From NCBI GenBank assembly GCA_014879675.1, contig JACSRQ010000055.1, positions 1-58,699 of the forward strand: a stretch of DNA of 58,699 nucleotides, given 5' to 3'. The stretch comes from Ignavibacteria bacterium (lineage in GTDB: Bacteria > Bacteroidota > Ignavibacteria > Tepidaquicellales > OLB5). Of the stretch, positions 9,407 through 57,781 are shown piece after piece; positions within the stretch are counted from its first letter, which is position 1; each line of letters starts with the position of its first letter. Under the pieces are notes generated by a model. That model was not told the origin of the DNA and searched no databases. It saw only the letters and a list, made by a program, of their open reading frames with translations. A program made the position numbers and the translations under genes.

Positions 9407-9446
9407 TGATACGCCGGATATAAAGAAATTAACTACACCCTTTGAC

Positions 9447-9480: not shown

Positions 9481-9486
9481 GTGTTA

Positions 9487-11210: not shown

Positions 11211-11217
11211 TAGCAGA

Positions 11218-11448: not shown

Positions 11449-12671
11449 AATCACTTAAATTACTTCTGCTGTGCCTCGCCTTCACCACTTCGGTTTTTTC
11501 GCAGTGGCAGCAGCAAAACACACCGGATAATACAAGTTCGTATTACGATCTTGAAGCAATTAGTCAGCAGACCGTTTATTGCGCCGGCCAGATAGTATTA
11601 AAAACAGTAAACGGCGGTACAACATGGACGCCGCTGACTATTGCGGGCTATTTTCAAATCGTCTTCGGAATTTCATTCTACAGCGCCACTACAGGATGGG
11701 GATGCGGATACGACGGCAAGATATTTAAAACGACAAACGGCGGAACGGCGTGGACAACACAAACTGCAGGTACCGAATCTTTCTGGGATATTCTGTTTGT
11801 AAACGCATCTACCGGGCTTGTATGCGGAGGTTCTGGCAAACTTTATAAATCAACGAACGCAGGCGCAAACTGGATAGCCAAAAACCCGGGAACTTCTCTG
11901 GAATTGAGAAGTATTGCGAATTACAATGCGAGTATTATATGGATAGGCGGAGGTGAATCACAAGATGGAATTATTCTAAAGTCAACCAACAGCGGCGATA
12001 GCTGGCAGACAATGCAAACCTTTGACAGGCCAATTCAAAAAATTCAATTCCTTAATGCCTCGACGGGATTTGCTTCAAGTGACAGCAGGGTATTCAAATC
12101 AACCAACGGCGGCGCTAACTGGGTTGATGTAAACCTTCCTACCTCGGGATATTTTCTGACCTTTTATATGGCGAATGAAAATGTTGGTTACGCCTCCAAT
12201 TGGGATAATACTTACAAAACCCTCGATGGCGGCATGACATGGGGTGAACAAAACACCATTTTGCCGAATGTTTCTATGAAGGATATAGAATTCGCGCCGG
12301 GCAGCACCTCAATTGGATGGATGTGCGGATCAAACGGGGCGATAGTTAGTACAACCAACAGTGGCGGCGGATTCATAGGTATCGAGCCTATCTCCGGAAA
12401 CGTGCCGGAAAAATATTCGCTCAGCCAAAACTATCCGAATCCGTTTAACCCCACAACTAACATTAAGCTTCAAATTCCTGAATCAGGTTTGGTAAAGCTG
12501 GTTGTGTTTGATGTAACAGGCAGGGAAGTTGCTGAGCTTGTGAATGAAACATTAACGGCAGGTGAATACAAAGTTGATTTTAACGCATCGGGTCTTACAA
12601 GCGGTGTATATTTTTACAGACTGACTACAGAAGGTTTTAGTGAAGTTAAAAAAATGATATTAGTTAAATAA
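11445..12671 (+). CDS. T9SS-exported YCF48-repeat protein
   Basis: A 408-residue protein with a signal peptide (TSVFSQ cleavage region, residue ~20), six or seven YCF48-like repeats ('IFKTTNGGTAWTTQ', 'LYKSTNAGANW'), and a T9SS CTD from QNYPNPFNPTTNIKLQIP to KKMILVK. It is probably a single beta-propeller displayed on the surface. The ATG overlaps the stop of the small ORF upstream. Its CTD is nearly identical, also at DNA level, to those of the genes at 12706, 17737 and 19558. Confidence 0.85.
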   Translation: MKSLKLLLLCLAFTTSVFSQWQQQNTPDNTSSYYDLEAISQQTVYCAGQIVLKTVNGGTTWTPLTIAGYFQIVFGISFYSATTGWGCGYDGKIFKTTNGGTAWTTQTAGTESFWDILFVNASTGLVCGGSGKLYKSTNAGANWIAKNPGTSLELRSIANYNASIIWIGGGESQDGIILKSTNSGDSWQTMQTFDRPIQKIQFLNASTGFASSDSRVFKSTNGGANWVDVNLPTSGYFLTFYMANENVGYASNWDNTYKTLDGGMTWGEQNTILPNVSMKDIEFAPGSTSIGWMCGSNGAIVSTTNSGGGFIGIEPISGNVPEKYSLSQNYPNPFNPTTNIKLQIPESGLVKLVVFDVTGREVAELVNETLTAGEYKVDFNASGLTSGVYFYRLTTEGFSEVKKMILVK

Positions 12672-12705
12672 CTGCCTTTATAAAATAAACTGATCATATA
12701 AAAAA

Positions 12706-14343: not shown

Positions 14344-14389
14344 CTGAAGTACAAAATATAAACCATAAAGGAAAAATTTTTAAGAAAGT

Positions 14390-15544
14390 ATGAAACGAAT
14401 AAAAGCGAATAAACTTATCTATTTAGTAACACTGATCTTAGCCGCGTTCTTAACTTCATGCGGCGAAGAGGGAATTAATAACATTCAGTCAAACGATCCG
14501 CAATTTAATATGGATAAGTTTGAAGAGAATCTCAGGGATTCACTTGATGGTGCTACGGTAGGCTATGTTTATGCAATAAATCTAAACGGGCAGCTTAACC
14601 GGTCGGGTGATTCAGGATTTGCAAGGACATCACTTGACGGGCAGATATTGCAGTCAACCACAAAAAGAATGAACATTGCATCAATAACCAAGACCATCAC
14701 AGCAGCCGCAGTATTACAGTTGCTTGAAAGACGCGGACTGACAATTGATTCACTAATAGCGCCATGGCTGCCGGCTGACTGGAATTTAGGAACCGGGGTA
14801 GGCAGTTTGACATTCAAGAGCCTGCTTACTCACCGAACAGGATTCAATTCCGCCAACTCAAACTTTGACGCGACACTTTCGTTTAACGCGTTAAGAGATT
14901 CAGTGGCGACAGGCTGCATAAATCCGCAGACTCATTTGTATCAAAATATGAATTACGCCTTATGCAGGGTAATTGTTCCGGCTTTATGGAAAGGGTTACC
15001 CGGCTCGCCTTCTATTGGAGAGATGAACGCAACATCTGCAAGCTTCTTCTATAGGCTCTACATTCAACAGGAAATTTTCGATAAGATAGGTGTGTTGAAT
15101 GCGGATTGTATAAGCCCGGCGGGTGAACAGCCGACATTGTTCTACACAAACGCCGCAAATACACCCGGCGTTGATTATGGTGACTGGTATATGATATGCG
15201 GCGGCGGCGGTTATTATTTATCAGCAATCGATCTTGCGAACTTTCTGGCAAATATCAGGTACAACAACGATATACTCTCAGCCGTAAACAGGAATATTAT
15301 GAGGGATAATTACATTGGCTGGTCAGAAAACGGAACGCTTAATGGAGCGCATGGCGAGTATTTCAATCACGGCGGTTCAATAAATAATACCGGACCCGCA
15401 GGCGGAAACCAGGGGAATATGCGCGGACTTATCATCCAGTTTCCAAATGATGTTGATCTGGCGTTAATGACTAATTCAGAAATTGGCGCTGATGTAAGCA
15501 TAAGGACAGTTGTATTCAATGCATATGAAAATGCATGGGAATAG
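14390..15544 (+). CDS. Serine beta-lactamase-like / class C penicillin-binding lipoprotein
   Basis: A 384-residue protein. The lipobox LTSC (Cys24) predicts membrane anchoring. The beta-lactamase class C/serine hydrolase motifs are present: S98-I-T-K101 (SxxK), Y184-Q-N (YxN), and a HGG near residue 326 in the KTG/HxG position. This family includes D-alanyl-D-alanine peptidases, esterases and AmpC-like enzymes, and the substrate cannot be assigned. It is the last gene of the operon starting at 11218. A terminator follows at 15607. Confidence 0.85.
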   Translation: MKRIKANKLIYLVTLILAAFLTSCGEEGINNIQSNDPQFNMDKFEENLRDSLDGATVGYVYAINLNGQLNRSGDSGFARTSLDGQILQSTTKRMNIASITKTITAAAVLQLLERRGLTIDSLIAPWLPADWNLGTGVGSLTFKSLLTHRTGFNSANSNFDATLSFNALRDSVATGCINPQTHLYQNMNYALCRVIVPALWKGLPGSPSIGEMNATSASFFYRLYIQQEIFDKIGVLNADCISPAGEQPTLFYTNAANTPGVDYGDWYMICGGGGYYLSAIDLANFLANIRYNNDILSAVNRNIMRDNYIGWSENGTLNGAHGEYFNHGGSINNTGPAGGNQGNMRGLIIQFPNDVDLALMTNSEIGADVSIRTVVFNAYENAWE

Positions 15545-15606
15545 TATTTTAGAAGATTAAAAAATTTACCTGTATATAACCCCCAATTGTAAAATAGGTA
15601 AATCGG

Positions 15607-15649
15607 TTGCAGGACTTACTCGCTTGAGAGGTCCTGCAATTGTTTTTTT
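15607..15649 (+). terminator. Rho-independent terminator of the 11218-15544 operon
   Basis: Stem TTGCAGGAC / GTCCTGCAA with a 15-base loop and a T-rich tail on the plus strand. Confidence 0.8.
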
Positions 15650-15658
15650 CAGAAAATG

Positions 15659-15732
15659 CTATTTGTTCAGGTAAGCAAGCTCGAAGCTGCCATCGGGGTA
15701 AATAACCGGGTGTTCGGCATCGCGGGAGTATT
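15659..15732 (-). pseudogene. 3' fragment of a transglutaminase-like gene
   Basis: Translation on the minus strand gives 24 in-frame C-terminal residues (YSRDAEHPVIYPDGSFELAY and LNK, then stop) nearly identical to the end of the protein encoded at 20997-21656 (YSRNAEHLVIYSDGSFELAY). DNA similarity begins at GCTATTTGTTCAGG, position 15658, and stops by ~15732, next to the 3' end of a helical-family gene. There is no start codon or upstream part, so it is a remnant of a duplicated or rearranged copy. Confidence 0.8.
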
Positions 15733-15736
15733 TTGT

Positions 15737-17191
15737 TTAAAGATTCTCGATCATTTCCAGCAGCCACTGCCTGCTGTGCAGATTGGGAGATACGGCATCA
15801 ATTTTATTTTTCACCTCATTCGGGTCTGCCTTCTTTTCACCTGATTTCATCTTCAGCAGCTCGTAATATATTGCCGTAAAGTTCAGGTATAAATTTCTGT
15901 AAGTGTCGTTCATGTTTTTATTTTTATACAGGAATTGTTTATATGAATCAAGCGCAAACCCGGCAGACTGGAAATCGCCTTTTTCATAGTATATCCTTAA
16001 ATAGAATGATTTCATTGAAAGCTTGAACAGGAACTGGCTAAGCTTGGTTTTATTCAGCATCTCAAGCGCCTTATCATATTCTTTCCGTTTATAAAGAATA
16101 ATTGCCCGCGCGAAATTTATGGCTCCTTCCCTGATCTCAGGCTCAAGATCAGCATGGTGCTTTTCTGCAAACTCCTCAGCCCAATTTACCTGGTTAATTT
16201 CAACCGAGTTTATAAAGATGTTCCAAAACTTCAGAAGATGCAGAGTTCCTTCTTCGTAAAGCTTCAGCAGGTTCAGCTCAATTGACTTTCTGTGAATTGT
16301 GTTCAGCTCTGCCCTGAATTTTGCAGAATCTATCTTTATGTTATCGATACAAAAGGTCTCAAGGGTGGTGATGAAGTTATAGTTGGTTGACCTGTTGAAC
16401 AGCGAAATATTATCGAGCAGTAATTTTTTGAACTTCACGTAATCTTCTTCTTTTCCGTTGAGCGAGAGCATTGCCCTGTAATAAAAGATAAGCAGCACGG
16501 AATGCTCTTTTTCCGAGGAAACCTTAAGCTTGTTAAGTATCGAATCCATATCAAGCCCTTCAAAAAGCTTCAGGGTGAATGAATTACTATCCTTCATGCT
16601 ATAGTATCTTTCGTTCACCTTCATATCGATTATGTGGTTAATCAGCTTCGAGATATAATCGTAAGTAAGCAGCTCACCCTGCCTTACAACAACGGGGTAA
16701 ACGCCTTCCTGCCGGTTGTGCGTTATCTCGTTGAGAAAAACCTCGCCTTCAAGCTTGTAAAGATTTTCGAAATATAAAAAATCGAAGGAGTGATCCTTTT
16801 GCACCGCCGCGTATGCAGCCTTAAGATTCTTATCATACTGTGCGTCAAGGTTTCTCGTCCTCAACGCATGCAGGATAGATCTCATTTTCAAATTTTGATC
16901 TTTGAGCAGGCTTTCGGATACGAGAAAATCATAGCAAAGCTGTAAAGCATCGCTCATTAGATTCCTCATTACCTGGTCATTATACACTTCAGAGGAAAAT
17001 ACCTTTGCATAGATCTTTTCTTTTGTGAAATTCCTGTTCTCAAAATCAGGGTGATATTTCTTCACAAGCTCTACCAGCTTCTTCACAGACTTTGATGAAT
17101 TATGATAAGGGGAATTGGCAAAATCAGAGAACTTTTTCATTTCCTCCTTTGATAGAGTTTTGATCACATCTATGAAGTTGGTTTTGAGCAT
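15737..17191 (-). CDS. Helical TPR-like protein, family A (copy 2)
   Basis: A 484-residue cytosolic-type protein with the family A signatures: FSDFANSPYHNSSKSVKKL near residue 20, YNDQVMRNLMSDALQLCYDFL near residue 75, ARAIILYKRKEYDKALEML near residue 365, a YYEKGDFQSAGFALDSYKQF segment, and a C-terminal QWLLEMIENL. It is mostly charged helices with no catalytic motif seen. It is divergent from the small ORF/SBBP T9SS unit at 17505 and convergent with the 11218-15544 operon. A -7 box TACTTTTG lies at 17202-17209, only ten bases before the ATG. Confidence 0.75.
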   Translation of the reverse strand: MLKTNFIDVIKTLSKEEMKKFSDFANSPYHNSSKSVKKLVELVKKYHPDFENRNFTKEKIYAKVFSSEVYNDQVMRNLMSDALQLCYDFLVSESLLKDQNLKMRSILHALRTRNLDAQYDKNLKAAYAAVQKDHSFDFLYFENLYKLEGEVFLNEITHNRQEGVYPVVVRQGELLTYDYISKLINHIIDMKVNERYYSMKDSNSFTLKLFEGLDMDSILNKLKVSSEKEHSVLLIFYYRAMLSLNGKEEDYVKFKKLLLDNISLFNRSTNYNFITTLETFCIDNIKIDSAKFRAELNTIHRKSIELNLLKLYEEGTLHLLKFWNIFINSVEINQVNWAEEFAEKHHADLEPEIREGAINFARAIILYKRKEYDKALEMLNKTKLSQFLFKLSMKSFYLRIYYEKGDFQSAGFALDSYKQFLYKNKNMNDTYRNLYLNFTAIYYELLKMKSGEKKADPNEVKNKIDAVSPNLHSRQWLLEMIENL

Positions 17192-17201
17192 ATCTAGATT
17201 A

Positions 17202-17209
17202 CAAAAGTA
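17202..17209 (-). promoter_or_regulatory. -7 box candidate for helical-family copy 2
   Basis: TACTTTTG on the minus strand, ten bases before the ATG at 17191. No clear -33 TTG at the usual spacing. Transcription from it would give a very short or absent leader. The remainder of 17210-17465 shows nothing I can name. Confidence 0.45.
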
Positions 17210-17465
17210 GTTACTTCTTAGTGAATAATATATTGAAAACTATGAGTTTATTGCCTGCTAAGACATTTTACTGTAATAGGCAGCAGGTTACAAGTTAATA
17301 AAACTTTTAATCTAAAAAAAAGTTATTACAAATCAGTTTTTTTTACTCCGGATAATTGCCTAAAGGATGCCGGAATCGAGATAAAAGTGATCTACTGACC
17401 GGTTAATAAGCGGTTATAGTGCAAAATATTGCGCTGATTCAGGTTACACCGGCAAATAGTTCTAA

Positions 17466-17497
17466 TTGAAGAGCATACCGGGCAGATGCTATTTTTG
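17466..17497 (+). promoter_or_regulatory. Promoter for the 17505-19437 unit
   Basis: TTG (17466-17468), 21-base spacer, TATTTTTG (17490-17497). The ATG at 17505 follows the -7 box by seven bases, the same distance as at 11210/11218. Confidence 0.7.
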
Positions 17498-17504
17498 AAG
17501 AGTA

Positions 17505-17735
17505 ATGAAAATCAAAAAAAAGGTTGAGGGCGATGGTAAGAAGCAAAGAGATACAGACCGTGTAAGCACAGAGACCATGATGGATAAACTCTATTATTCA
17601 CATCTTTCAGAGCTGCTGTTTGAGTGCGGAACGAACGGCAAGGACGGAAAAACCAACAGCATGAGCACCAAAAATGATTCAGAAAAAAAGAAGAACAATA
17701 ACAAAACATACATCAATAAATTAAACAAAAAATAA
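17505..17735 (+). CDS. Small Lys/Asn-rich ORF coupled to a T9SS gene (copy 2)
   Basis: A 76-residue ORF, Lys/Asn-rich at both ends, with a central hydrophobic/aromatic stretch (MMDKLYYSHLSELLF) that can be lined up with MMENQMYSWLISSAY in the ORF at 11218. The stop codon and the ATG of the downstream T9SS gene are separated by one base (TAATATG). Length, promoter spacing and position match the 11218 ORF, but overall identity is low, so homology is probable and not certain. It could be a leader peptide. Confidence 0.5.
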   Translation: MKIKKKVEGDGKKQRDTDRVSTETMMDKLYYSHLSELLFECGTNGKDGKTNSMSTKNDSEKKKNNNKTYINKLNKK

Positions 17736-17736
17736 T

Positions 17737-19437
17737 ATGAAAGACAAACACTACACAACTTCCTCAGCAGGATCGGGAATTTCATTCACGGCAAAGCTAA
17801 TTTTTATGTTTGCCATTTTCTTCGTTTTCGCGGGTACATTTGTTTATGCCCAGCCATCAGAAATATGGTCCAGAACCTATAACAATCCAAACGGAACAGG
17901 AGATGACTATGGCGACAAATCAATAGTTGATGCCGATGGCAACACCTACATTTCAGCCAGCACCAGAACGGCAAGTACAAGCGATGACATCATGCTGGTT
18001 AAATATAATTCTTCCGGCGCACGTTTATGGACCAAAATCTACAACTACAGCTACAACGGCATAGAGCAGCCCAACGATATTTGTTTTGACGGCAGTGGGA
18101 ATATTTACGTTACGGGGACAAGCACAAGGGGCCCCGGAGGTGTGCATGACGCGATACTTTTAAAATATGATACGAACGGGAATATTCTCTGGGTGAAAAG
18201 AATAAACAGGACGAATTTTGCTGACCGTGAAGCCGAAGGTGTTTCGCTGGTTGCAAGAGACGGAATTTATGTAGGCATGACATTGCAATATAACGGGTAT
18301 ACGGAATGCGGCATAGCAAAGTATGCTTTTACCGGCGACTCACTTTCGTATATATCACTGGGTGTTGCAAACAATTTCTCGTACCGGATGATAAAAATGG
18401 TAAAAGATAATTCGCTCAATATTTATGCGGTTTGCGCAGGTGATCTGATTGCGAATGAAGAGCAGGATTTTATAGTAAGAAAGATAAATACAAACGGCAG
18501 CTTTACGATAGAATGGAGCAAAACATATACCGGCGCTTCGCATATGGATGACAATCCCCGTGATATTGCAGTTGGCCCCGATGGCAACATATTTATCGCA
18601 GGAAGTACAACGGTTTCCAACCAGGGAACCAACTCGCTGCTTCTGAAGTATGGCAGGGATGACGGCTCATTGATATTTCAGAAAACATACAACGACCCTG
18701 TTTCGAACCAGAGTGACTATGCGAGTCATATTTCTTTTGATTTGAGTGCAAATATCATTCTAGGCGGAGCTACAACACCATTGAACACATCTTCAAATCT
18801 GCTGTTAATTAAATACTCTCCGGCCGGTTCACAGTTGTGGGTAAAAACGTATGAACATCCCGGAAACAGGCCCGAGGGAATCCGCGATATGAAATTAGAC
18901 GGTTCTGATAATATATATGTTATCGCCGATATGTTTGACCCGATTGCTCAAACCGTAAGTCTTTTGACAGCTAAGTTCAGCTCAGCGGGTGATTTAGACT
19001 GGAACATAGAAAGACCCGGCCTGAACAGTTCACAGGGATTCAAATCACTCCATATTTTACAGGATGGAAGCCTTATTGTTTCAGGAAACACAGACTCTGC
19101 GGGTATCAGAAAAACATTGCTGATAAAATATGGATCTACCATAGGAATAGAGCCGATCTCCGGCAATCTGCCTGAGAAATATTCCCTTGGTCAAAACTAC
19201 CCGAATCCGTTCAACCCGACAACCAATATTAAGCTGCAAATTCCTGAATCGGGTTTGGTAAAGCTGGTAGTGTTTGATGTAACAGGCAGGCAAGTTGCAG
19301 AGCTTGTGAATGAGACATTGATGGCAGGTGAATACAAGGTCGATTTCAACGCATCGGGTCTTACAAGCGGTGTTTATTTCTACAAGCTAACTTCAGCAGG
19401 ATTCACGGAAACTAAACGTATGGTACTGGTTAAATAA
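17737..19437 (+). CDS. T9SS-exported SBBP-repeat protein
   Basis: A 566-residue protein with a longer signal peptide (hydrophobic residues ~19-38, FVYAQ cleavage region), eight or nine SBBP-type propeller repeats ('DADGNTYISASTRTASTSDD', 'ILLKYDTNGNILWVK'), and a T9SS CTD (QNYPNPFNPTTNIKLQIP through KRMVLVK). It resembles the protein at 12706 in both repeat type and CTD. It is probably followed in the same transcription unit by the gene at 19558, 120 bases on, with no terminator seen between. Confidence 0.85.
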   Translation: MKDKHYTTSSAGSGISFTAKLIFMFAIFFVFAGTFVYAQPSEIWSRTYNNPNGTGDDYGDKSIVDADGNTYISASTRTASTSDDIMLVKYNSSGARLWTKIYNYSYNGIEQPNDICFDGSGNIYVTGTSTRGPGGVHDAILLKYDTNGNILWVKRINRTNFADREAEGVSLVARDGIYVGMTLQYNGYTECGIAKYAFTGDSLSYISLGVANNFSYRMIKMVKDNSLNIYAVCAGDLIANEEQDFIVRKINTNGSFTIEWSKTYTGASHMDDNPRDIAVGPDGNIFIAGSTTVSNQGTNSLLLKYGRDDGSLIFQKTYNDPVSNQSDYASHISFDLSANIILGGATTPLNTSSNLLLIKYSPAGSQLWVKTYEHPGNRPEGIRDMKLDGSDNIYVIADMFDPIAQTVSLLTAKFSSAGDLDWNIERPGLNSSQGFKSLHILQDGSLIVSGNTDSAGIRKTLLIKYGSTIGIEPISGNLPEKYSLGQNYPNPFNPTTNIKLQIPESGLVKLVVFDVTGRQVAELVNETLMAGEYKVDFNASGLTSGVYFYKLTSAGFTETKRMVLVK

Positions 19438-41254: not shown

Positions 41255-42718
41255 TCAATTCAGAGTACTGCCCTGTAAATCTGAGATCTTTTCAAGCAGC
41301 CATACTTTAGAAGATGTCGGTTGTGATGCCATCACTTCTTCTTTAACTTTTTCCGCCAGCTCCGGATCCGGATCTGCTTTGAGCATTAAAATGTTTTTAA
41401 CAAAAGTGAGAAAGAGCCTCAAACCTGTTTTATTTTTGTCGTTGATATCAGACGCGTTATCAAGAAAGCGTTTGAAAGAATCAATCGCGCTGATCGTTGT
41501 TTCCATATGGCTCAGCTCGTAATATGATTTTAACTGGAGCAATTTTACATCACATTTAAAGAAAAAATTAACATTGTTCTGTTCCCAAAAATCCTTGAAG
41601 TTGATCCGGGAGCAGAGCGATAAACACTCTTCAAACTTTTTTTCGGCAAAACTCAAAGTTGCATCAGAGTACATCACGACTATTTCCGGGTTTTCACAAA
41701 TAACCTTGTGCTTGTTCGCATTTATGAAATCTTTCATTATCAGGTATTCATTTGTATTGGCTGCAAGTTTAACAATGTTCCGGTATGCTTCAAGCTCTAT
41801 AGAGCCGTCTTTTCGGTGTGAAAATATTCTCCTGTTAAGTACTTCTATGTTAAGCTCAAGCTGAATCCGCCTGTATTCATCCTTGCCTTCGTGTTTTTTG
41901 AAAAGGCACAAAAGGATAAGTATGTTATAAATGTTCTTTGATTCATTTACCGGAAGTATATCTATTATGGAATAGAAGAGCTTTCTTGCCCGGTCAAAAT
42001 AGTCGTCTTCCATGATCTCAAAGAATGAGAGCATGAGGTAATATAAAATTCTCAGTAAAGGTGAGCCGCTAAATGCTTCTTCATCTTCCCTAAAATAATT
42101 AAGCAGGTATTCCAGGAACCTGAGATCATGCTTGTTCGTGGTCTTCTGCATTTCAACCGCCAGGTGAAAATTATTGAGAAGGTAGTGCAGCATGAACGAC
42201 TCGAGTATAAGTTCGTTAGTCTTTGTCCTTGCTTCATCTGACATTTTGCGGTTCATGTAATATTCGTCAATAAGAGTCTGCACGGTGAATTTTTCAGTGT
42301 AATAAAACTGGTCTTTTACTTTGGTGTTTTCAATCTTGTTGTTGAAAGCATTAGCCTTCTTTAAGAAAATGTCAAATGCTTTTCTATCCCAGAGCTCATT
42401 TATTAATGATCTATCGTAAGTTGTAGTTCTTTTCCAATTGGAATAACTTAAGTAGTCTTCGGCTAATTTTTTAAGCTCGAAAATCAGGTTTTTCATTATT
42501 CCGTAATTGTATTTCTTGCCCTTGTAGATCTGTTCCCATAAAGATTCCTTCTCAAGCCCTTTATCATCAAAATCCGGCGCGTATTTTTTAATTGCCCTGT
42601 AAAGAGTTACCACAATTGTATTTTTGTTATGATACCCGGAAGAAATAAAGCGATCAAAATCAGAAAACTCTTCTTTTGTGAACGTTTTTAGAACTTCGAT
42701 GAGTGAAGATTTTAACAT
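41255..42718 (-). CDS. Helical TPR-like protein, family A (copy 4)
   Basis: About 487 residues from the ATG at 42718 (MLKSSLIEVLKTFTKEEFSD), which aligns with the starts of the other copies; the ORF-track start adds 11 residues. Family A features: FDRFISSGYHNKNTIVVTL, YAPDF, YNYGIMKNLIFELKKLAEDYL, SDATLSFAEKKFEECLSL, DVKLLQLKSYYELSHMETTI with DSFKRFL, and a C-terminal VWLLEKISDL. Unlike the other copies it has no divergent T9SS partner; an exported protein gene (42810-44231) lies just upstream on the same strand, separated by a terminator. Confidence 0.75.
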   Translation of the reverse strand: MLKSSLIEVLKTFTKEEFSDFDRFISSGYHNKNTIVVTLYRAIKKYAPDFDDKGLEKESLWEQIYKGKKYNYGIMKNLIFELKKLAEDYLSYSNWKRTTTYDRSLINELWDRKAFDIFLKKANAFNNKIENTKVKDQFYYTEKFTVQTLIDEYYMNRKMSDEARTKTNELILESFMLHYLLNNFHLAVEMQKTTNKHDLRFLEYLLNYFREDEEAFSGSPLLRILYYLMLSFFEIMEDDYFDRARKLFYSIIDILPVNESKNIYNILILLCLFKKHEGKDEYRRIQLELNIEVLNRRIFSHRKDGSIELEAYRNIVKLAANTNEYLIMKDFINANKHKVICENPEIVVMYSDATLSFAEKKFEECLSLCSRINFKDFWEQNNVNFFFKCDVKLLQLKSYYELSHMETTISAIDSFKRFLDNASDINDKNKTGLRLFLTFVKNILMLKADPDPELAEKVKEEVMASQPTSSKVWLLEKISDLQGSTLN

Positions 42719-42773
42719 TATGGTGTATGAATGATTAAGTGGCGCTAGCAATAAAAGTGAAAAAAGAATAAAA

Positions 42774-42809: not shown

Positions 42810-44231
42810 TTACTCGCCCCATTTCCGGAGGCTGGGCGCAATGCGCTGGCCGCCTGTGTTGCCGGGGGCTGCAGCTTTTTTGTTCGGATTGGGTTTGCGC
42901 GGCGTATCATCATCATCACATGAGCCGCCTGCAAGCTGGTTGGATGAACAGTTCCACCAGTCCTTAACATAATCCAGATGCCTGCTTATCCAGCTTGCCT
43001 TCTTTTTGAAGTCTGTTGGATTTTTAACCGCGTCCATTGCATCCTTCATGTGTTTATCGGAATTGAATTCACCGCTGAGGCTGTTTTCAGAGCCCTTGCC
43101 GGGATTATTGGAATCCTTTTTATACTTGGCTATTTTTTTGAAGAAATCATTAGCCGTAGTTAAGCGCGCTTTGTAAAGTGCTGCAGTCGGATCCTGCGGG
43201 TAGCTTTTGAACTCGGTTACATTCTTAAGCTCTTTGCCGTCGCCGCGAATCATCCACCCGAAATCTTCAATAAGCTCTTCTTCACCGGGATTTGTGCCGG
43301 TGAACTTAACCGATTTAAACCTGTAAACAGGATAAAACTTTCCGTCATCACCCTTCAGTACATCGCTTCCGGGTTCATCAATATAGCTGATCTCAATTTT
43401 ATCGCCGCCTTTTTCATACATTGTGATCCTGCCCTGTGCATCTCTTGTAACATTTACTGCCTGCGGGCGGTAAAGCTCCAATATCGATTTCTGGTAGCCC
43501 TCGGGCATCATACGCATATAAAATCCATCGCCGATATATGCCCAGTTACCCGGGTTAACCTGCTTCTTCAGCAGGTCTGAAGGCGGATCGCCAGGCAGTA
43601 CTGCCATGCTTTCGATCTCCTCAAAAGATGAACCGGGATCGGTGATCTTACCTCGCAGGTCTTTGTAGAATTTCGCTGTGCTTTTGACCTCGTCGGGGAG
43701 TATATCAAGAGGTACATCGCTTATGCCGATACTCAGCTCTGTAATTTCCGAAGGAGTAAGAAGCGGCTTCACGCGAAGCTGAAGCTCGGGGCTTAGATCG
43801 GTAAACTTTGCGCCGTAGATTATTGACCACAGCAAAAGCTGGATATCCTTCTGCGCAACTTCGGGGTGTTCTGCTGAACGGGTTAATATGTTCGTTACCA
43901 GGTTATCAAGCTTTCCTTTTATTGGCGCGATCAAATGTCCGCTGCCTTTTGTTGGGCCGTGAGTGCCTGCTTTGAGGCAATAGCTTTGAATGGTAAGCCT
44001 GTAATAGCCGGGTCCGAGCGGCGCATTGTAATCAGCCGGCTCAACCGGGTCTCTCAATTCTTCAATGTCATCTATCCAGAATGACACAGGGTATGCGTCA
44101 TCAATAGATGTTGTAATATTTTTTTCCTCCAGCAGGTCGGGTGCCGCGGTCTTTTTGATAATATCTTCAAACTGTGCCTGCAATACAGCGGGAGCCAGCA
44201 GCAGAAGAAATACCAGTAATTTGTTTAACAT
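42810..44231 (-). CDS. Exported protein of unknown function
   Basis: A 473-residue protein with a signal peptide (LLLLAPAVLQAQ, cleavage near residue 20). A conserved-looking block lies at residues ~75-165 (YYRLTIQSYCLKAGTHGPTK, LIAPIKGKLDN, DIQLLLWSIIYGAKFTDLSP). The C-terminal ~100 residues are Lys/Asn-rich, with SCDDDDTPRKPNPNKK, and look disordered. I do not recognise a family name. RBS CAGGAG precedes the ATG, and a -7 box TATTTTTG lies at 44265-44272 on the minus strand. Confidence 0.7.
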   Translation of the reverse strand: MLNKLLVFLLLLAPAVLQAQFEDIIKKTAAPDLLEEKNITTSIDDAYPVSFWIDDIEELRDPVEPADYNAPLGPGYYRLTIQSYCLKAGTHGPTKGSGHLIAPIKGKLDNLVTNILTRSAEHPEVAQKDIQLLLWSIIYGAKFTDLSPELQLRVKPLLTPSEITELSIGISDVPLDILPDEVKSTAKFYKDLRGKITDPGSSFEEIESMAVLPGDPPSDLLKKQVNPGNWAYIGDGFYMRMMPEGYQKSILELYRPQAVNVTRDAQGRITMYEKGGDKIEISYIDEPGSDVLKGDDGKFYPVYRFKSVKFTGTNPGEEELIEDFGWMIRGDGKELKNVTEFKSYPQDPTAALYKARLTTANDFFKKIAKYKKDSNNPGKGSENSLSGEFNSDKHMKDAMDAVKNPTDFKKKASWISRHLDYVKDWWNCSSNQLAGGSCDDDDTPRKPNPNKKAAAPGNTGGQRIAPSLRKWGE

Positions 44232-44875: not shown

Positions 44876-45105
44876 ATTGTTTTTAGAATTAGTTGATTGG
44901 TCAATTATGTGTTGTAACACTCATATGGGGGTTTAAGTTTCATGGATTGGAGGAAACCGGTGTTTAAGGCTACTATTGGCATTAAGACGGCATGCTTAAA
45001 CCTAAAAAAATTGAAAATTAGCCTGATAAATCATGATCATATGAGTTACATATATATTGTATATTGAAAATTTGATATTATTAGTTTAATTTCACAAAAA
45101 ACAAT

Positions 45106-45343
45106 ATGAAACAACCTAAAAAAACTTTTTAATGCTGATGTAACAATTGCTCCGGTTATAAGTGTAAATGATAAAGAAGTTAAAACATACGATACGGTGG
45201 CAGAAGCAATTGCAGATTTAGAAAATGATCCAAATATCTCAAAGGAAAAACTTGATAAATTGAAAATTACATTAAGTGAGCTCAAACTCACAGGAAAAGT
45301 GAGTATTAAGAACGGGGAAATATTTACGGAGGAAACAAAATGA
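45106..45343 (+). pseudogene. Frameshifted small gene upstream of the 1292-residue protein
   Basis: In the frame ending at the TGA of 45341-45343 the sequence reads KKLFNADVTIAPVISVNDKE and continues to a C-terminal GEIFTEETK. It is paralogous to the intact 59-residue protein at 49796-49975 (MLKFLKKLFNADVTIAPVVS). The only nearby ATG (45106) is in another frame, stopping after eight codons, because the AAAAAAACTTTTT tract is two bases shorter than in the paralogue. This is either a real frameshift, a homopolymer sequencing error, or translation from a non-ATG start. Its TGA overlaps the ATG of the downstream gene. Confidence 0.65.
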
Positions 45344-48300
45344 GAACATTTAAAACACTGGCGGTAATATTCATGTTATTTGCGGCAGTTACAAGCTTGC
45401 ACGCAGGGGATAAAGTAAAAATTATACTTCACCAGCCTCCGCCGCATCAGTTGGGCATTGGTGATATGTGGAATCTTTCACTTGAAAACACGACCAAGAG
45501 TGATCTTAAGATATATTTAACCGGCACAGCAACAGAGGAAAAAGACGGGCTTATTATAGAGGGTAAATCGAAAGTGTTTACTATTAAACCCGGAAAGACC
45601 AATTACAAGTACAATGACTTTCCCGGCGCGGAAATTAAGTACAATAATGGTAAGTATAAAGAAGTTATACTCCGCACAGGCAATGCGCCTGAAGGCAGCT
45701 ATACTATCTGCGTAACTGCATTTGAGGAGAGCGGTGAAATTGCCGGAATGGAAAATTGCATAATGCAAACCGTGCAGCAATTGGGAAGCATATCGCTTAT
45801 CAGCCCCGAAGACGGCGCGGAAATAGACCCTAAGCAGCCGATAGTATTTACATGGACACCGCTGCCAAAAGGCGGGCCGTATTCAATTAAAATAGTTGAA
45901 ATTAAGGGTGATCAATCGCCTGACGTAGCGATAAAAGAGAACAGGCCAATCTTAGATAAAGAGGGCGTCAAAGTTAATACATATCAGTATGGACTCACAG
46001 ATCCTAAGTTGGTTGCAGGTAAAAAATATGCATGGCAGGTAACGAGTGGAGAAGTGGAGAGTGAAGCGTGGACTTTCAGGATGATGAGCAGCCAGTATCA
46101 AATAATAGTGGATACTGTTATAATAAAGTGTGACACATTAACTTTTAATCCTAATAAATTTTTTTATCAAATTAAAATACGTAACAACAATTCTGCAGGG
46201 ACTTCAGGACCTTCAAACACAGCAAAAGCTTATATAACTTCAACAAATCCGATAGTTACAAGTATAATTCCTGATTTTAATACACCAATTACAATTTCAT
46301 ATAACAATACAGGTATAATTTCAGGTTCAATTAATTTTTTAATCGCACCTTCAAGCATCCAGTTTGTTGCAAAGTTGGAGGATAATACTCAACCTGAGGT
46401 TTATAATGCTACTGCGCCATACACTATTAGTTTACCTATTTGCAATATATCAGAAGGCAAATGCGATTGTGGCAGAATTGACTTTCAAAACAATAAGATA
46501 ACATATACGTCTTCAGGGGAATTAAGAACTGTTTCAATTCAATGTGATGCAACTTACAGAGTTGATCCGGGTAGCATGGTTTTATTCTCGCCCGCATTTA
46601 ACTGCGGTGGCAACTGCCAGGCGAGATATGAATATACCGTGAACGGAATTCCCAAGGGAATTCAGGCTTCACCATATGCTATCGGACCTGTGAATTTTCT
46701 TACAAATGTGAAGATACGGTATTGGTGCGGAGACAATATTTGTGATTCATGTATTGTTATACTTGACACTTTGAGTAAGAAAGAGCTGGGAGATTGCGGT
46801 TGTAACATTGGCGGTCTTGTATTCGTTAATTATAATAACAGCAGCGAAACTTATCCCTGCCCTTGTGGAGCTACAATAAATGTTAATTCTAACACCCTTA
46901 TTACATTTACACCTAAAAATCCCTGTTCAGGAGATTCCTTATGTTTTAAAGGTTCTTCATATCAAATATTAGATAGCAATTACATAGTAGTTGGACAAAG
47001 CCAGTTAAATATTCCGCCTCAGGGAAGTTTCTCGTATAATTTTTACCTCGGGAATTACACTGTAAAAATTAAATCAATTTGCGGCAGCGATACCTGCGAG
47101 TGTATTATCTATATTGCCACTGGCAAGCCTGATTGCGATTGCGGCAGATGGGAAAACAATAATTCAGGAATTGGATATACGACTAAACCCCCGATTCCCG
47201 ACATAAACAGAGTTCCGAAATCGAATAATAAGCAGGAAAACGAAGACATAAGAAAACTAAAAATTATTCCTGATACAGGAATTGTAAATTCCAATCAAAA
47301 TGCAAATTCGGTAAATTGTAATGATACTTTATCAAATTTCGAAAAAAACACTGAATTCAGGTTCACGAGTGCAACTTATTTGTGCTCCTCTCCCGGATGT
47401 ACTCCGCAATATATCTGGACGATTAAACACCCAGCGCCATCAACTTTAGTACAGGATGTAAATGTAAAATCTTTTACTACTACACTTAGTGAATCAGGTA
47501 TTTACACTATAACGCGTAAGATAACTTGCGGTGGTAAAATCTGCGATGAATGTGTATTTTATGTTAAGGTAGATGATGTTAATACAGGACATAATACAGG
47601 CAATTGCAACTGCGGCGGATGGCAAAGAGAAAAAAAGGTCACATTTTCAGACAACCAGAGAAGCTGGACAAAAAACATTGAGTGTTTTATGCCGAATGTA
47701 TTAGGTCCTGTAAAACCAGGTCTTCCTATTACATTCGTCGCTTCATATCTGTGCGTTCCAAACTGCCCCACAAAATACAACTGGATATTGTATAACATGA
47801 CGGATAATACAATCGAATCATTTGCTGATAATGTTACCGGCATGCCTATTCAATTTACACCTGCCGGTTCATTAACAAATTACAGATTCGTTTTATATCC
47901 GAATTGCGGAGGAAAAATATGCGACTCCTGCGGATTTAATTTTAAAACACTTGAGAAAAAACAAACCTGCGATTGCGGTAGATGGTTTTCGCGGAGTTTA
48001 ACAGCAATACATGATGGTAAAGATACTTTGTACAATGATTATATAAATTGCAAAGATACAATAAAAATAAGTAAATTGAATACGGCTATCAACCTCTTTG
48101 GCAGCTATGCATGTGGGTCAAGTGATACAGGGCACTGCAGAGCTAAGTATCAATTTGATTGGAAAACACCATCCAATCAATATAATACATCCGGGAATCT
48201 GGTAATCGGCGAATACTCATTTCCCGCAGCAACACAAGGAATATATTCAGTTACTCTGTATTCTTTATGTGATTCAAAGAAATGCGATTCCTGTAATATC

Positions 48301-49218
48301 TTTATTAAATTAGATACAAATTATATTAATGATAATTCTTGCAAAACAAAAACCCTTAACATTAGTTCGGGAATCAATGGAATGTGGTATGTGGTTAGTG
48401 ATCCGAACATTTCTACTATCGAACCAAGAGAAGTCACTACAGTTGATATATATGGATATAAAGGATGGAATGATCCTTTCCCTCAAACAAAGTGGATAAA
48501 TGCAAATATTGAGGAAAAAGGAATCTATACATATCAATGCTGTTTTTGTTTAGAGAATACTGATAATGCTTCAATTTCGTTGAAATATTATGTAGATAAT
48601 GAAGCACGGTTTTTTCTTAATGGTTACGAACTTCCTGATTATAAAGTTGATTTCCCAGGTAACTTTAATAAACCATTCAAACAGGTTTCCATTTCAAATG
48701 AATTATTAAATAATGGTAATAACTGCCTAATTTTTATTGTAAAGAATTACAATGCTTTCGGTCATGGAACACCAACTGGCTTAAATGTTCAAGGTGTAGT
48801 TTTAGGAAATGTTCTCAAGCAAAATTGCTGTAATAAGGCAGTCTTACCCGCAAATTGTTCTTGCGGTGACAATGTTATTCCAAAAATAATAGTAACAAAC
48901 AGGAATTCAATGTCTCCTAAAACCGAAGAGCTTTCAGACGATGAAGGAACTTCATTAAATTCATTTTATTCATTATCAACTGGAAACGAATTGTCCTTTT
49001 CTTGCGATTATTTCTGTTCAAATCAGTATTGTCCTCCTCAATTCAAATGGGAAGTTTTAAACGATAATGACTTAGTAATCTTCGAAACAACCGAACAAAT
49101 ATTCCGATATGCATTCAGTTTCCAAGGATTCCCAAAACCTGTTTATTATAAATTACGGTTGACCATAAAATGTTTAGATAACACTTGTAAAACATTAACA
49201 ATAAGAATAAACCAATAA
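45340..49218 (+). CDS. Large exported Cys-rich repeat protein
   Basis: A 1292-residue protein with a signal peptide (SLHAGD, residue ~22). Residues ~150-250 are fibronectin-III-like (SLISPEDGAEIDPKQPIVFTW). There are then six diverged units, each starting with C-x-C-G/N (residues about 374, 485, 598, 755, 876, 1172); the typical unit is 'C(D/N)CG(R/G)W ... C ... y.C...C...y.W ... CGGKICDSC.F'. Between residues ~1015 and 1160 lies a jelly-roll-like insert with YYVDNEARFFLNGYEL. It has no NYPNPFNP domain. Cys pairs are probably disulfides outside the cytoplasm. It is linked by an ATGA overlap to the small gene upstream. Confidence 0.75.
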   Translation: MRTFKTLAVIFMLFAAVTSLHAGDKVKIILHQPPPHQLGIGDMWNLSLENTTKSDLKIYLTGTATEEKDGLIIEGKSKVFTIKPGKTNYKYNDFPGAEIKYNNGKYKEVILRTGNAPEGSYTICVTAFEESGEIAGMENCIMQTVQQLGSISLISPEDGAEIDPKQPIVFTWTPLPKGGPYSIKIVEIKGDQSPDVAIKENRPILDKEGVKVNTYQYGLTDPKLVAGKKYAWQVTSGEVESEAWTFRMMSSQYQIIVDTVIIKCDTLTFNPNKFFYQIKIRNNNSAGTSGPSNTAKAYITSTNPIVTSIIPDFNTPITISYNNTGIISGSINFLIAPSSIQFVAKLEDNTQPEVYNATAPYTISLPICNISEGKCDCGRIDFQNNKITYTSSGELRTVSIQCDATYRVDPGSMVLFSPAFNCGGNCQARYEYTVNGIPKGIQASPYAIGPVNFLTNVKIRYWCGDNICDSCIVILDTLSKKELGDCGCNIGGLVFVNYNNSSETYPCPCGATINVNSNTLITFTPKNPCSGDSLCFKGSSYQILDSNYIVVGQSQLNIPPQGSFSYNFYLGNYTVKIKSICGSDTCECIIYIATGKPDCDCGRWENNNSGIGYTTKPPIPDINRVPKSNNKQENEDIRKLKIIPDTGIVNSNQNANSVNCNDTLSNFEKNTEFRFTSATYLCSSPGCTPQYIWTIKHPAPSTLVQDVNVKSFTTTLSESGIYTITRKITCGGKICDECVFYVKVDDVNTGHNTGNCNCGGWQREKKVTFSDNQRSWTKNIECFMPNVLGPVKPGLPITFVASYLCVPNCPTKYNWILYNMTDNTIESFADNVTGMPIQFTPAGSLTNYRFVLYPNCGGKICDSCGFNFKTLEKKQTCDCGRWFSRSLTAIHDGKDTLYNDYINCKDTIKISKLNTAINLFGSYACGSSDTGHCRAKYQFDWKTPSNQYNTSGNLVIGEYSFPAATQGIYSVTLYSLCDSKKCDSCNIFIKLDTNYINDNSCKTKTLNISSGINGMWYVVSDPNISTIEPREVTTVDIYGYKGWNDPFPQTKWINANIEEKGIYTYQCCFCLENTDNASISLKYYVDNEARFFLNGYELPDYKVDFPGNFNKPFKQVSISNELLNNGNNCLIFIVKNYNAFGHGTPTGLNVQGVVLGNVLKQNCCNKAVLPANCSCGDNVIPKIIVTNRNSMSPKTEELSDDEGTSLNSFYSLSTGNELSFSCDYFCSNQYCPPQFKWEVLNDNDLVIFETTEQIFRYAFSFQGFPKPVYYKLRLTIKCLDNTCKTLTIRINQ

Positions 49219-49224
49219 TTAAAT

Positions 49225-49287
49225 ATGAGAGATAACACTAGTAAAATATTATTTACATTTGTATTGATGGCTTTAATAGTTCCATAG
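49225..49287 (+). pseudogene. Isolated signal-peptide fragment
   Basis: ATG opens a 20-codon frame MRDNTSKILFTFVLMALIVP that looks like a signal peptide and ends at TAG. It directly follows the 1292-residue gene. No continuation was found, so it is probably the remnant of another exported gene. The interval 49288-49530 has no intact gene. Confidence 0.4.
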
Positions 49288-49530
49288 AAAACATAATATT
49301 ACGGTTATATCAATTTGAACCATAAGTAACAGTTGGGCTATTAACTATGATACAATAACAAGCGATACGAATAATCGGTGCATTAATTTAATGGTTCCTG
49401 TATCAGTGTTTTATAAAGTTTTCAATGCGGATAAATCCGTAATGTGTGATCACAAAAATGTTAAGATACCAAGACCGTAGTAAGAGTAATATAAAAAACA
49501 AAATTGCTTCAAATCTAAAGGAGAAACAAA

Positions 49531-49778
49531 ATGTTGAACCCAGGGAAATCCCGGTATTTATCGGGTAAAACAACAATTTAATTTTTATTACTCATCTTTA
49601 TCATTTCATTATTTGCAAATCTTCAGGCAGTGCAATGGCGATACTAGTTAATGAAGAACTGCGGCCTGGTAAATACGAAGTTGATTGGGATGCTTCGCAC
49701 AGGGCAAGTGGAGTGTATTATTACAAATTGGAGACTGAAAGTTATACAGAAACAAAGAAGATGGTACTTATCAAATAA
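49531..49778 (+). pseudogene. Decayed T9SS cargo gene (signal region plus CTD end)
   Basis: After AAAGGAGAAACAAAATG a signal-peptide-like stretch with an early TAA (then FLLLIFIISLFANLQ in frame) is followed at once by the last ~45 residues of a T9SS CTD: ILVNEELRPGKYEVDWDAS, then SGVYYYKLE and TKKMVLIK stop (49635-49778). The central cargo part is missing. This looks like an internal deletion of an exported gene. Confidence 0.7.
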
Positions 49779-49795
49779 ATAAATGTAGTTCTATA

Positions 49796-49975
49796 ATGCT
49801 GAAATTCCTGAAAAAACTGTTTAATGCAGATGTAACGATCGCTCCGGTTGTGAGTGTAATAGAAGACGAAGTTAACACTTTCGATACTTTAGACGACGCA
49901 ATATCAGGCAATGAAAATGATCCGAATAAGCAAAATGCATTAGAGGATAAATCTGCGGATAAAGATAAAGAGTAA
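49796..49975 (+). CDS. Small protein paralogous to the frameshifted gene at 45106
   Basis: A 59-residue protein, MLKFLKKLFNADVTIAPVVS, acidic and Asn-rich at its C-terminus. The basic N-terminal helix and VTIAPVxSVxxxEVxTxDTxxxA core match the ORF before the 1292-residue gene. It is not in the ORF track. Function unknown. No cargo gene follows, so it may be an orphan of a lost cassette. Confidence 0.6.
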   Translation: MLKFLKKLFNADVTIAPVVSVIEDEVNTFDTLDDAISGNENDPNKQNALEDKSADKDKE

Positions 49976-50023
49976 AAGCGTAATATATCTTTCCCGGTAT
50001 CCGGAGATTACAGTGGGCAAAAA

Positions 50024-50142
50024 GAGTTAGTCTCAAAATTCAATAGGAGACGACCCACCGGGTCGTCTCTACACGATAATCCTAAAAAAACCAAAACATC
50101 TTGTTTTGAAACATTTCAAAATGTTTGATTTGAGACAAACTC
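50024..50142. repeat. MITE-like element with internal hairpins
   Basis: 119 bases bounded by 14-base inverted ends with one mismatch (GAGTTAGTCTCAAA / TTTGAGACAAACTC). Inside are a hairpin AGACGACCC / GGGTCGTCT and a second inverted pair AAACAT / ATGTTT. No coding capacity. Confidence 0.65.
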
Positions 50143-50170
50143 ATAAAGCCACTTTTGGGGTAGAATAGGT

Positions 50171-56263: not shown

Positions 56264-57781
56264 ATGCCTGTATCAAATGATATTTTTGAACTTGTAAGGG
56301 TAATGACGCGGAAGGAAAAGTCCTTCTTTAGGAGATATTCCAGGCTTAATTCAGCCGGAAAAGATGGAGCTATGATAAAATTATTCGAAAAGCTCGTGGA
56401 ATATTCAGCGGAAAGGGATACATATGACGAAGAAGTATTAAAGAATGGGCTTGACGCAAAAACAATAAAACATTTTCCGGTAGTAAAGAATAACCTTTAC
56501 AAGCTATTATTAAAGAGCATGAACGTATGCAGGGAAGATAACAACAATACTGAAAGGGTAAAGAACCTGCTTGAACAGTATGATATACTATTCTCAAAAT
56601 CGTTATTAAAGCAGTGTGAAAGTATTTTAAGAAAAGCCAGGAAGATCTCTGAAGAAAACGAAATGTTCTTTCACCTGCAGGATATCATGAATAAAGAAAG
56701 AGTGCTGGCACGTTATATGCTTGACGCAGATAGTTACGAAAAAGTGATAGAAAAAGTTTACCGTGAGCAAATAATTAACCTTGAGAAGATAAGGAACCTG
56801 ACAGATATGAATGACCTGGGGAACAGGTTAACAATATTGAGCCAGAAAAACCCAACCGCCAAAGCACGCGATGAGAGCCTGATGGCAGAGTTGAAGTATA
56901 TCACTGAGCACCCGCTTCTTAAGGATGAATCAAAAATGCTGAGCTCAACAACACTCAAAAGGTTTTATAACCTAAATACTGTTACTTCCGAGTGGAGAAG
57001 TGATCATTCATCAGCAATGGTATTTGCCAGGAAATATTCCGAGCTTGTTGAAAAAGAAGTTGAGATCGGCAAATCGACCATACATGAATACATTATTTCT
57101 TTGTATGCAAATGCTACAGCATGTACACGGGTAGATAATTTTGATGAGTACGAGATAGTGTATGAGAAGCTTGCCGGGATCCATGAAAGGTTTGAATATA
57201 TTACAGAGCGCGATAAGCTTGAAGCCTTTTATTACCTTGGCTTAGATGTCTTTTCTGCAAGCGCATCTAACTATCACCCTGAAAGGGGACTGAAGATCCT
57301 TGAAGAAGCAGAGTTAAATCACGAGCAGATGGGTAGATGGCTCAGCGTTCAGCAGAAGATAGTCTGGTATTTTGTAATTGCCAGGTTTTGTTTTTCTAAA
57401 GGTACCTATAACGATGCCGGCAGGTGGCTAAACAGGCTGATCCAGATCCCTAATATAGATGTATCGCAGGATTACCAGTGTTACGCGAGGATAATGAATC
57501 TTGTGGTTGCATATGAATCGGGTAACCCTGACAGGATAGAACATGAACTAAGAAGATCGTATTACTTCCTTACAAAAAGGAACAAGATATATAAATATGA
57601 AAGAATTATTCTTGAATATACCAGGCAGGCATTCAAGGTGAGGTCACAAAAAGAAATAAACGAGATGCTTGAGTTCATGCACCGTGATCTAAGCTCCATA
57701 TCTAATGATCCGTTTGAGAAAAATGCGTTCGATGCATTCAATATGATACCCTGGCTCGAGGAAAAATTACTTAAAACTTAG
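56264..57781 (+). CDS. Helical TPR-like protein, family B (copy 2)
   Basis: A 505-residue soluble, charged, helical protein with the family B layout: SNDIFELVRVMTRKEKSFFR at the N-terminus, HFPVVKNNLYKLLLKSM near residue 75, a long helical midsection, VVAYESGNPDRIEHELRRSY near residue 410, and a C-terminal MIPWLEEKLLKT. It corresponds position by position to the 25693 protein, which has VLKNQLYDAVLDAL and HYELGNYDLIEYIT. It is divergent from a T9SS YCF48 gene. Function unknown; no catalytic motif. Confidence 0.7.
   Translation: MPVSNDIFELVRVMTRKEKSFFRRYSRLNSAGKDGAMIKLFEKLVEYSAERDTYDEEVLKNGLDAKTIKHFPVVKNNLYKLLLKSMNVCREDNNNTERVKNLLEQYDILFSKSLLKQCESILRKARKISEENEMFFHLQDIMNKERVLARYMLDADSYEKVIEKVYREQIINLEKIRNLTDMNDLGNRLTILSQKNPTAKARDESLMAELKYITEHPLLKDESKMLSSTTLKRFYNLNTVTSEWRSDHSSAMVFARKYSELVEKEVEIGKSTIHEYIISLYANATACTRVDNFDEYEIVYEKLAGIHERFEYITERDKLEAFYYLGLDVFSASASNYHPERGLKILEEAELNHEQMGRWLSVQQKIVWYFVIARFCFSKGTYNDAGRWLNRLIQIPNIDVSQDYQCYARIMNLVVAYESGNPDRIEHELRRSYYFLTKRNKIYKYERIILEYTRQAFKVRSQKEINEMLEFMHRDLSSISNDPFEKNAFDAFNMIPWLEEKLLKT

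What the first reader, a model, noticed from the sequence alone, without database searches (positions are those of the whole stretch)
45340..49218. 1292-residue protein with six Cys-rich units and no recognisable T9SS sorting domain
The repeated 'C(D/N)CG(R/G)W ... CGGKICDSC' units are unlike the propeller repeats of the neighbours, and a jelly-roll-like insert lies near the end. An exported disulfide-rich architecture linked to a small paired gene may be a new adhesin-like type.
Basis: partly seen in the sequence, partly recalled or inferred. Interest (0 to 1): 0.6.

Follow-up and report, generated by a model that had tools for sequence, protein, structure and literature searches.

The report
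Cysteine-rich surface protein with TANFOR-like head
This is a secreted, disulfide-rich protein of an uncultured Ignavibacteria bacterium whose front end belongs to a widespread Bacteroidota family that is almost always encoded beside one uncharacterised large outer-membrane pore, which suggests a so far unrecognised route for putting such proteins on the cell surface.

Summary
The ORF 45340-49218 (1292 aa, 59 Cys) has a signal peptide, six Cys-rich units and a jelly-roll insert, and no T9SS sorting domain. Each unit is an Ig/FN3-like beta-sandwich (AlphaFold2 pLDDT 88.7) with eight conserved Cys. Cys 3 and 8 are present or absent together in 50 of 50 units, which supports a 3-8 disulfide. No database domain matches the unit, and in 149 genomes of the class nearly all hits lie in genes of the family below. 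Proteins with this head are encoded, same strand and usually next door, beside an unannotated outer-membrane beta-barrel of about 24 strands: 18 of 20 barrel genes picked blind from other classes of the phylum, and 26 of 28 named loci (adjacent or fused). Only 1 of 75 such proteins has a T9SS tail. One plasmid locus reads barrel, TANFOR-like WHH nuclease, SUKH immunity. I propose that the barrel is the dedicated outer-membrane partner of TANFOR-like proteins; the Cys-rich repeats are one non-toxin cargo. This copy is an orphan in a 5.2-kb strain-specific insert. Export and adhesion remain inferred.

The parts
45340..45405 (+). signal peptide (aa 1-22)
   Evidence: MRTFKTLAVIFMLFAAVTSLHA: basic n-region, hydrophobic core (best 12-aa Kyte-Doolittle 2.73), A-x-A-like end; no signal-peptide predictor was run
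45403..45780 (+). N-module (aa 22-147), TANFOR-like beta domain
   Evidence: 60-75% identical to close paralogues and orthologues; alignment A1 against TIGR02542-hit proteins A10: hhalign probability 99.8, E 1.9e-30
45784..46089 (+). FN3-like module (aa 149-250) always following the N-module
   Evidence: shared by the whole family
46096..46449 (+). middle domain (aa 253-370), shared only with two close homologues
   Evidence: 61-64% identity to G012/G005 proteins up to aa 369
46459..46767 (+). Cys unit 1 (aa 374-476)
46792..47124 (+). Cys unit 2 (aa 485-595)
47131..47574 (+). Cys unit 3 (aa 598-745), with a ~45-aa insert after the first CxCG
47602..47949 (+). Cys unit 4 (aa 755-870); modelled: 9-strand beta sandwich, pLDDT 88.7, pTM 0.83
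47962..48315 (+). Cys unit 5 (aa 875-992)
48439..48819 (+). jelly-roll-like insert (aa 1034-1160), probably galactose-binding-like
   Evidence: 31% identical to part of an 893-aa T9SS-tail protein (L088); weak PDB profile hits to GH2 sugar-binding domains
48853..49212 (+). Cys unit 6 (aa 1172-1291), lacks Cys 3 and Cys 8; ends the protein
45116..45343 (+). small conserved gene, copy 1 (body LKKLFNADVTIAPVISV...EETK); stop TGA overlaps the ATG of the large gene (ATGA); start region out of frame (A7 run, 2 nt shorter than the intact homologue)
   Evidence: 75% identical to the intact copy on contig C115, also ATGA-coupled to an N-module gene; 49% identical copy upstream of an N-module gene in G030
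49635..49778 (+). remnant of a T9SS C-terminal tail (MAILVNEELRPGKYEVDWDASHRASGVYYYKLETESYTETKKMVLIK*)
   Evidence: same tail intact in G002 and G008 downstream of the small gene
49796..49975 (+). small gene, copy 2 (59 aa, intact start, truncated end); direct repeat of copy 1 (146 nt, 73%)
44957..50168 (.). strain-specific ~5.2-kb insert carrying all of the above; in same-genus relatives the two flanking genes are 43 to about 200 bp apart
   Evidence: GC 35% against 41-43% for the flanks

Best explanation
The protein is an orphan cargo of a TANFOR-like two-partner family. Shown by sequence and models: a Sec signal, a TANFOR-like N-module plus FN3-like module (aa 22-250), then an exchangeable cargo, here five Cys-stabilised Ig-like domains, a jelly roll and a sixth Cys domain, with no T9SS tail. 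Shown by genomics: the family is encoded beside, or in Ignavibacteria fused within, an unannotated outer-membrane beta-barrel of about 24 strands. Inferred: after Sec export the N-module/FN3 head docks to the periplasmic or pore side of the cognate barrel (here encoded elsewhere, contigs C217 and C12), the barrel passes or anchors the protein across the outer membrane, and the disulfide-locked Ig string with its sugar-binding-like jelly roll is displayed outside as a ligand-binding, adhesin-like stalk. In relatives the same head carries RCC1 propellers, FN3 strings or, as in Emticicia, a nuclease toxin with an immunity gene. The paralogue arrived in this strain as a ~5-kb insert.
For: Head homology to TANFOR: profile-profile E 1.9e-30; the same long proteins are hit by the window head and by TIGR02542. 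Modular exchange: 59-71% identity to homologues up to aa 246-255 (or 369), then unrelated sequence; GC changes from 43% to 35%. Barrel linkage: 18 of 20 barrel genes taken from other classes without regard to neighbours have a same-strand head protein next to them, mostly within 100 bp; 13 of the loci picked by TIGR02542 have the barrel directly upstream; 26 of 28 named loci, including Bacteroidales, Cloacimonadota and WOR-3, have it adjacent or fused. Own genome: two barrels, both with the head fused at their N-terminus. Barrel model: pLDDT 82, pTM 0.81, about 24 transmembrane strands and two N-terminal beta domains; the best PDB hits are the usher pores FimD/PapC, E 8e-9. No T9SS tail in 74 of 75 C-termini. 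Emticicia triad barrel / TANFOR-like WHH nuclease / SUKH immunity. Cys units: model, Cys3-Cys8 covariation 39 both, 11 neither, 0 discordant, Fisher p 3e-11, units not independent. Almost all Cys-unit hits in 149 class genomes fall in head/barrel loci.
Against: The window copy itself has no barrel within 45 kb upstream or 9.5 kb downstream. Its small partner gene is broken. Similarity of the barrel to ushers is of size and general shape only (TM 0.2-0.45). TIGR02542 itself does not hit the window protein, and no relative scanned reaches its curated cut-off. Among 12 weaker, longer barrel homologues only 5 have a recognisable head neighbour. Direction of transport, surface display and binding were not tested. 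The jelly-roll match is weak.
Confidence: 0.55

Rival explanations
1. TANFOR-like proteins, this one included, are T9SS substrates that lack a classical tail; the barrel acts as a PorP/SprF-like anchor that collects them from SprA.
For: Jana et al. 2020 (PMC7073777) proposed T9SS export from neighbourhood enrichment and co-occurrence; the genome has SprA and T9SS-tail proteins in the window; PorP-like barrels anchor type B T9SS proteins (PMC9143113).
Against: Only 1 of 75 family C-termini has a T9SS tail. PorP-like barrels are 14-stranded FadL-type (PMC9143113); this barrel is about 24-stranded, unrelated in Pfam, and its conserved partner feature is at the N-terminus. The barrel-head pair also occurs in MAGs labelled WOR-3, Stahlbacteria and Cloacimonadota, where T9SS was not checked.
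Confidence: 0.25
2. The barrel and the head proteins form a periplasm-facing structural complex; the Cys-rich string stays in the oxidising periplasm and is not displayed.
For: Barrel termini of such proteins normally face the periplasm, so the fused head should be periplasmic (inference); disulfide-rich domains suit the periplasm.
Against: Cargo is variable and polymorphic (toxin, RCC1, FN3, Cys strings, 300-3900 aa), the pattern of exported effectors and surface proteins; a nuclease toxin with immunity gene is pointless in the producer's periplasm.
Confidence: 0.15
3. The protein is a polymorphic toxin whose C-terminal region is an unrecognised toxin domain.
For: TANFOR proteins are described as polymorphic toxins (PMC7073777); conserved head with swapped cargo.
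Against: The C-terminus is a sixth Cys unit of the same Ig-like family, no separate C-terminal domain and no immunity-like gene follows; downstream are only remnants.
Confidence: 0.04
4. The gene is a decaying, non-functional passenger of a mobile insert.
For: Strain-specific insert with a broken small gene, a T9SS-tail remnant and a truncated second small gene.
Against: The 1292-codon frame is fully open, all units keep their Cys, and signal peptide and head are intact.
Confidence: 0.15

Closest known systems
TANFOR domain proteins (TIGR02542, T_forsyth_147; Jana et al. 2020, polymorphic toxins)
   Same: Sec-exported large proteins with an N-terminal ~150-aa domain followed by FN3-like module and exchangeable C-terminal part; profile-profile homology E 1.9e-30
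   Different: TIGR02542 itself does not hit the window protein; cargo is a disulfide-rich Ig/jelly-roll string, not a toxin; linkage to the barrel is not mentioned in the passages of the paper read here
T9SS type B proteins with PorP/SprF-like barrels
   Same: large repetitive surface protein encoded next to an outer-membrane barrel
   Different: no C-terminal type A or B tail; barrel about 24 strands instead of 14, no Pfam match; shared module is N-terminal and in Ignavibacteria is fused to the barrel
Two-partner secretion / CDI (CdiB-CdiA-CdiI)
   Same: barrel, long effector, immunity in one operon (Emticicia pEMTOL03)
   Different: no POTRA or Omp85 match in any barrel scanned; head is not a TPS domain by Pfam
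Chaperone-usher pores FimD/PapC
   Same: best structural hits of the barrel model, about 24 strands
   Different: TM 0.2-0.45, about 10% identity, no usher domain in Pfam, no chaperone gene looked for
PKD/Ig/FN3-type beta-sandwich repeats (e.g. T4 Hoc Ig domain, GH158 Ig domains)
   Same: fold class of the Cys unit (Hoc E 0.02)
   Different: eight-Cys pattern not found in any; Foldseek E no better than 6e-3, TM up to about 0.6

Membership tests
TANFOR (TIGR02542) | score above the curated cut-off (67 bits) | tested here: not met
   no match for the window protein at E<=1; own genome best 13 bits, E 0.18, in a paralogue
TANFOR (TIGR02542) | homology of the N-terminal region to TANFOR proteins | tested here: met
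   hhalign of A1 against TIGR02542-hit proteins: probability 99.8, E 1.9e-30, 220 columns; those reference proteins are themselves sub-threshold for TIGR02542 (best 55 bits)
TANFOR polymorphic toxin class | C-terminal toxin domain | tested here: not met
   C-terminus is Cys unit 6; no Pfam/NCBIfam match
TANFOR polymorphic toxin class | Sec signal peptide and exchangeable C-terminal part | tested here: met
   sequence; identity stops at aa 246-255 or 369 in close homologues
T9SS substrate | C-terminal type A/B sorting domain | tested here: not met
T9SS substrate | secretion dependent on SprA | not testable with these tools
   SprA is encoded; dependence needs a mutant
Omp85/TpsB exporters (for the partner barrel) | POTRA and Omp85 barrel domains | tested here: not met
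   no Pfam match to these in the barrel-bearing proteins scanned
Usher family (for the partner barrel) | usher domain by sequence; 24-strand pore | tested here: inconclusive
   no Pfam match; usher pores are top structural hits but TM 0.2-0.45
Known Cys-rich extracellular domains | database domain with the same eight-Cys spacing | tested here: not met
   Pfam, NCBIfam, PDB sequence and Foldseek searches

The most novel reading that the evidence does not exclude
TANFOR-like proteins and the adjacent ~24-strand barrel form a Bacteroidota-wide two-partner outer-membrane export and display system that does not use T9SS tails; the head is the recognition module, and this window shows a cargo class of disulfide-locked Ig strings, i.e. 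a surface adhesin rather than a toxin.
Probability: 0.38. Interest if true: 0.85.

Novelty: new variant of a known kind. Interest (0 to 1): 0.62.

Why it matters
How TANFOR polymorphic toxins leave the cell is an open question; the 2020 paper could only suggest T9SS. An unannotated barrel encoded next to almost every head protein is a concrete, testable candidate for the missing export or anchoring partner, probably overlooked because it has no domain model. The Cys-rich unit is a new extracellular domain family with a predicted disulfide, confined in the survey to these loci, and shows that the same head serves surface architecture as well as toxins.

Tried and rejected
The search for related loci with the single protein: 10 pattern matches, none confirmed; the head and full barrel alignments were too diverse for that tool. 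Phylum-wide TIGR02542 search gave no member above cut-off, so canonical TANFOR proteins could not be compared directly. Automatic iteration of the FN3 and Cys-unit HMMs on all loci merged neighbouring repeats and was discarded; the first-round HMMs were used. A two-unit alignment for modelling was too gappy in the second unit and was replaced by one unit. Rejected: T4 Hoc kinship (E 0.02, fold class only); usher membership of the barrel; toxin reading of the C-terminus; the idea that the small gene is specific to this family (it also precedes BNR/T9SS genes in G002 and G008). An early count of 27 of 28 barrel loci with a head neighbour (notebook) was corrected to 26 of 28 (L122, L128 have none).
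Full report
Observation. The ORF is real and open over 1292 codons. It carries 59 Cys, 48 of them in the regions of six repeated units, with four CxxxxCxxC motifs where shuffles expect 0.18. The units diverge (20-30% identity) but an HMM built from them alone recovers the same unit in 11 proteins of related genomes with E down to 1e-77. No Pfam, NCBIfam or PDB sequence matches the protein.

The Cys unit. Across 50 units the eight Cys fall at model positions 2, 4, 28, 48, 53, 98, 103 and 106 (0-based). Positions 28 and 106 (Cys 3 and 8) are both present in 39 and both absent in 11 units, never one without the other (Fisher p 3e-11; units from one protein are not independent, so the p value is optimistic). 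Cys 4, 6 and 7 are invariant, so covariation cannot pair them. An AlphaFold2 model of unit 4 from 14 units has pLDDT 88.7 and pTM 0.83, all beta, nine strands. Foldseek against the PDB gives only generic Ig/FN3 sandwiches, E not below about 6e-3, TM up to about 0.6; a profile search gives T4 Hoc at E 0.02. So it is a new sequence family on an old fold. In 149 genomes of the class the unit occurs in 9, in proteins of the family described next, in their locus neighbours, or in one fragmentary contig.

The insert near the end. Residues 1034-1160 resemble part of an 893-residue protein of another genome that has a weak T9SS tail, and a two-sequence profile weakly finds GH2 sugar-binding jelly rolls. 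I take it as galactose-binding-like with moderate confidence.

The head. The first 250 residues define the protein. They are 59-73% identical to paralogues and orthologues whose later parts are unrelated. A profile of 35 heads aligns over 220 columns with proteins hit by TIGR02542 (TANFOR), probability 99.8, E 1.9e-30; the two searches independently reached the same long proteins. TIGR02542 itself misses the window protein, so this is a distant branch, not a formal member. TANFOR proteins were described as polymorphic toxins of unknown export route, with T9SS suggested (PMC7073777).

The partner. In nearly every relative the head protein is encoded beside a protein that AlphaFold2 models as an outer-membrane barrel of about 24 transmembrane strands with a helical insert (pLDDT 82, pTM 0.81; the strand count is my reading of the DSSP line). 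In Ignavibacteria the barrel carries its own head at the N-terminus. Barrel genes were found in 125 of 297 Bacteroidota genomes at E<=1e-5; the count includes longer, weaker homologues. Twenty strong hits from other classes were fetched without regard to neighbours, and 18 have a same-strand head protein adjacent, mostly within 100 bp or overlapping. Thirteen of the loci picked by TIGR02542 have the barrel directly upstream. Of 28 named loci (Ignavibacteria, Bacteroidales, Cloacimonadota, WOR-3, Stahlbacteria), 26 have it adjacent or fused. For 12 weaker and longer barrels only 5 show a recognisable neighbour. Ushers FimD/PapC are the best structural matches at low TM. On the Emticicia oligotrophica plasmid pEMTOL03 the order is barrel, 2719-aa head protein ending in a WHH nuclease, SUKH immunity protein. 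The window genome does have SprA.

The window copy. It lies in a ~5.2-kb insert absent from the same-genus relatives examined, where the flanking genes are 43 to about 200 bp apart, with GC 35% against 41-43%. The insert holds a small conserved gene whose stop overlaps the start of the large gene (ATGA, also seen on contig C115) but whose start region is frame-broken here, a remnant of a T9SS tail, and a second small gene that repeats the first. The same small gene stands before a BNR/T9SS gene in two relatives, so it is not specific to this family. The barrels of this genome lie on other contigs; the linked locus may be split in the assembly.

Mechanism. Shown: exported architecture, disulfide-type domain, TANFOR-like head, strong genomic link to a large barrel. 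Inferred: that the barrel exports or anchors head proteins, that the head is the recognition module, that the Cys string is displayed outside, and that it binds a ligand.

Verdict. A sound observation. The protein is a new cargo variant of a known family; the barrel link is the part a specialist would not expect.

Noticed in passing
L235 (Emticicia oligotrophica pEMTOL03), 8875-19394: Barrel, TANFOR-like 2719-aa protein with C-terminal WHH nuclease, SUKH-1 immunity in one operon: a CDI-like order with a non-Omp85 barrel.
   Followed up: partly
window 44957-50168: Strain-specific low-GC insert between a DoxX-like gene and a 257-aa gene; two small-gene copies form a 146-nt direct repeat 4.7 kb apart.
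   Followed up: yes
window 45100-45130: A7 run and a 2-nt length difference put the start of small gene copy 1 out of frame; pseudogene, assembly error or recoding not decided.
   Followed up: partly
L101, L102 (G002:C6, G008:C2): The small gene also precedes a BNR-type T9SS-tail gene, itself preceded by a 129-aa ORF; a recurring cassette of unknown role.
   Followed up: no
L238-L249: Longer (mostly 800-930 aa) barrel homologues with an N-terminal extension of about 250-330 aa, some next to ~400-aa head-like proteins; may be a further branch.
   Followed up: partly
window 41255-42751 (-) and 56264-57781 (+): Two large proteins without Pfam match that look alike at the N-terminus; a similar gene flanks the small-gene cassette in G002 and G008.
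   Followed up: no
window 42810-44231 (-): 473-aa exported protein, no Pfam match, 78-85% identical in the genus and about 42% identical to the N-terminal part of ~900-aa proteins.
   Followed up: no
L085:3388-6273 (-), L084, L089: Head proteins next to a barrel gene whose cargo is an RCC1-like propeller (Pfam-confirmed in L085; similar C-termini in L084 and L089).
   Followed up: partly
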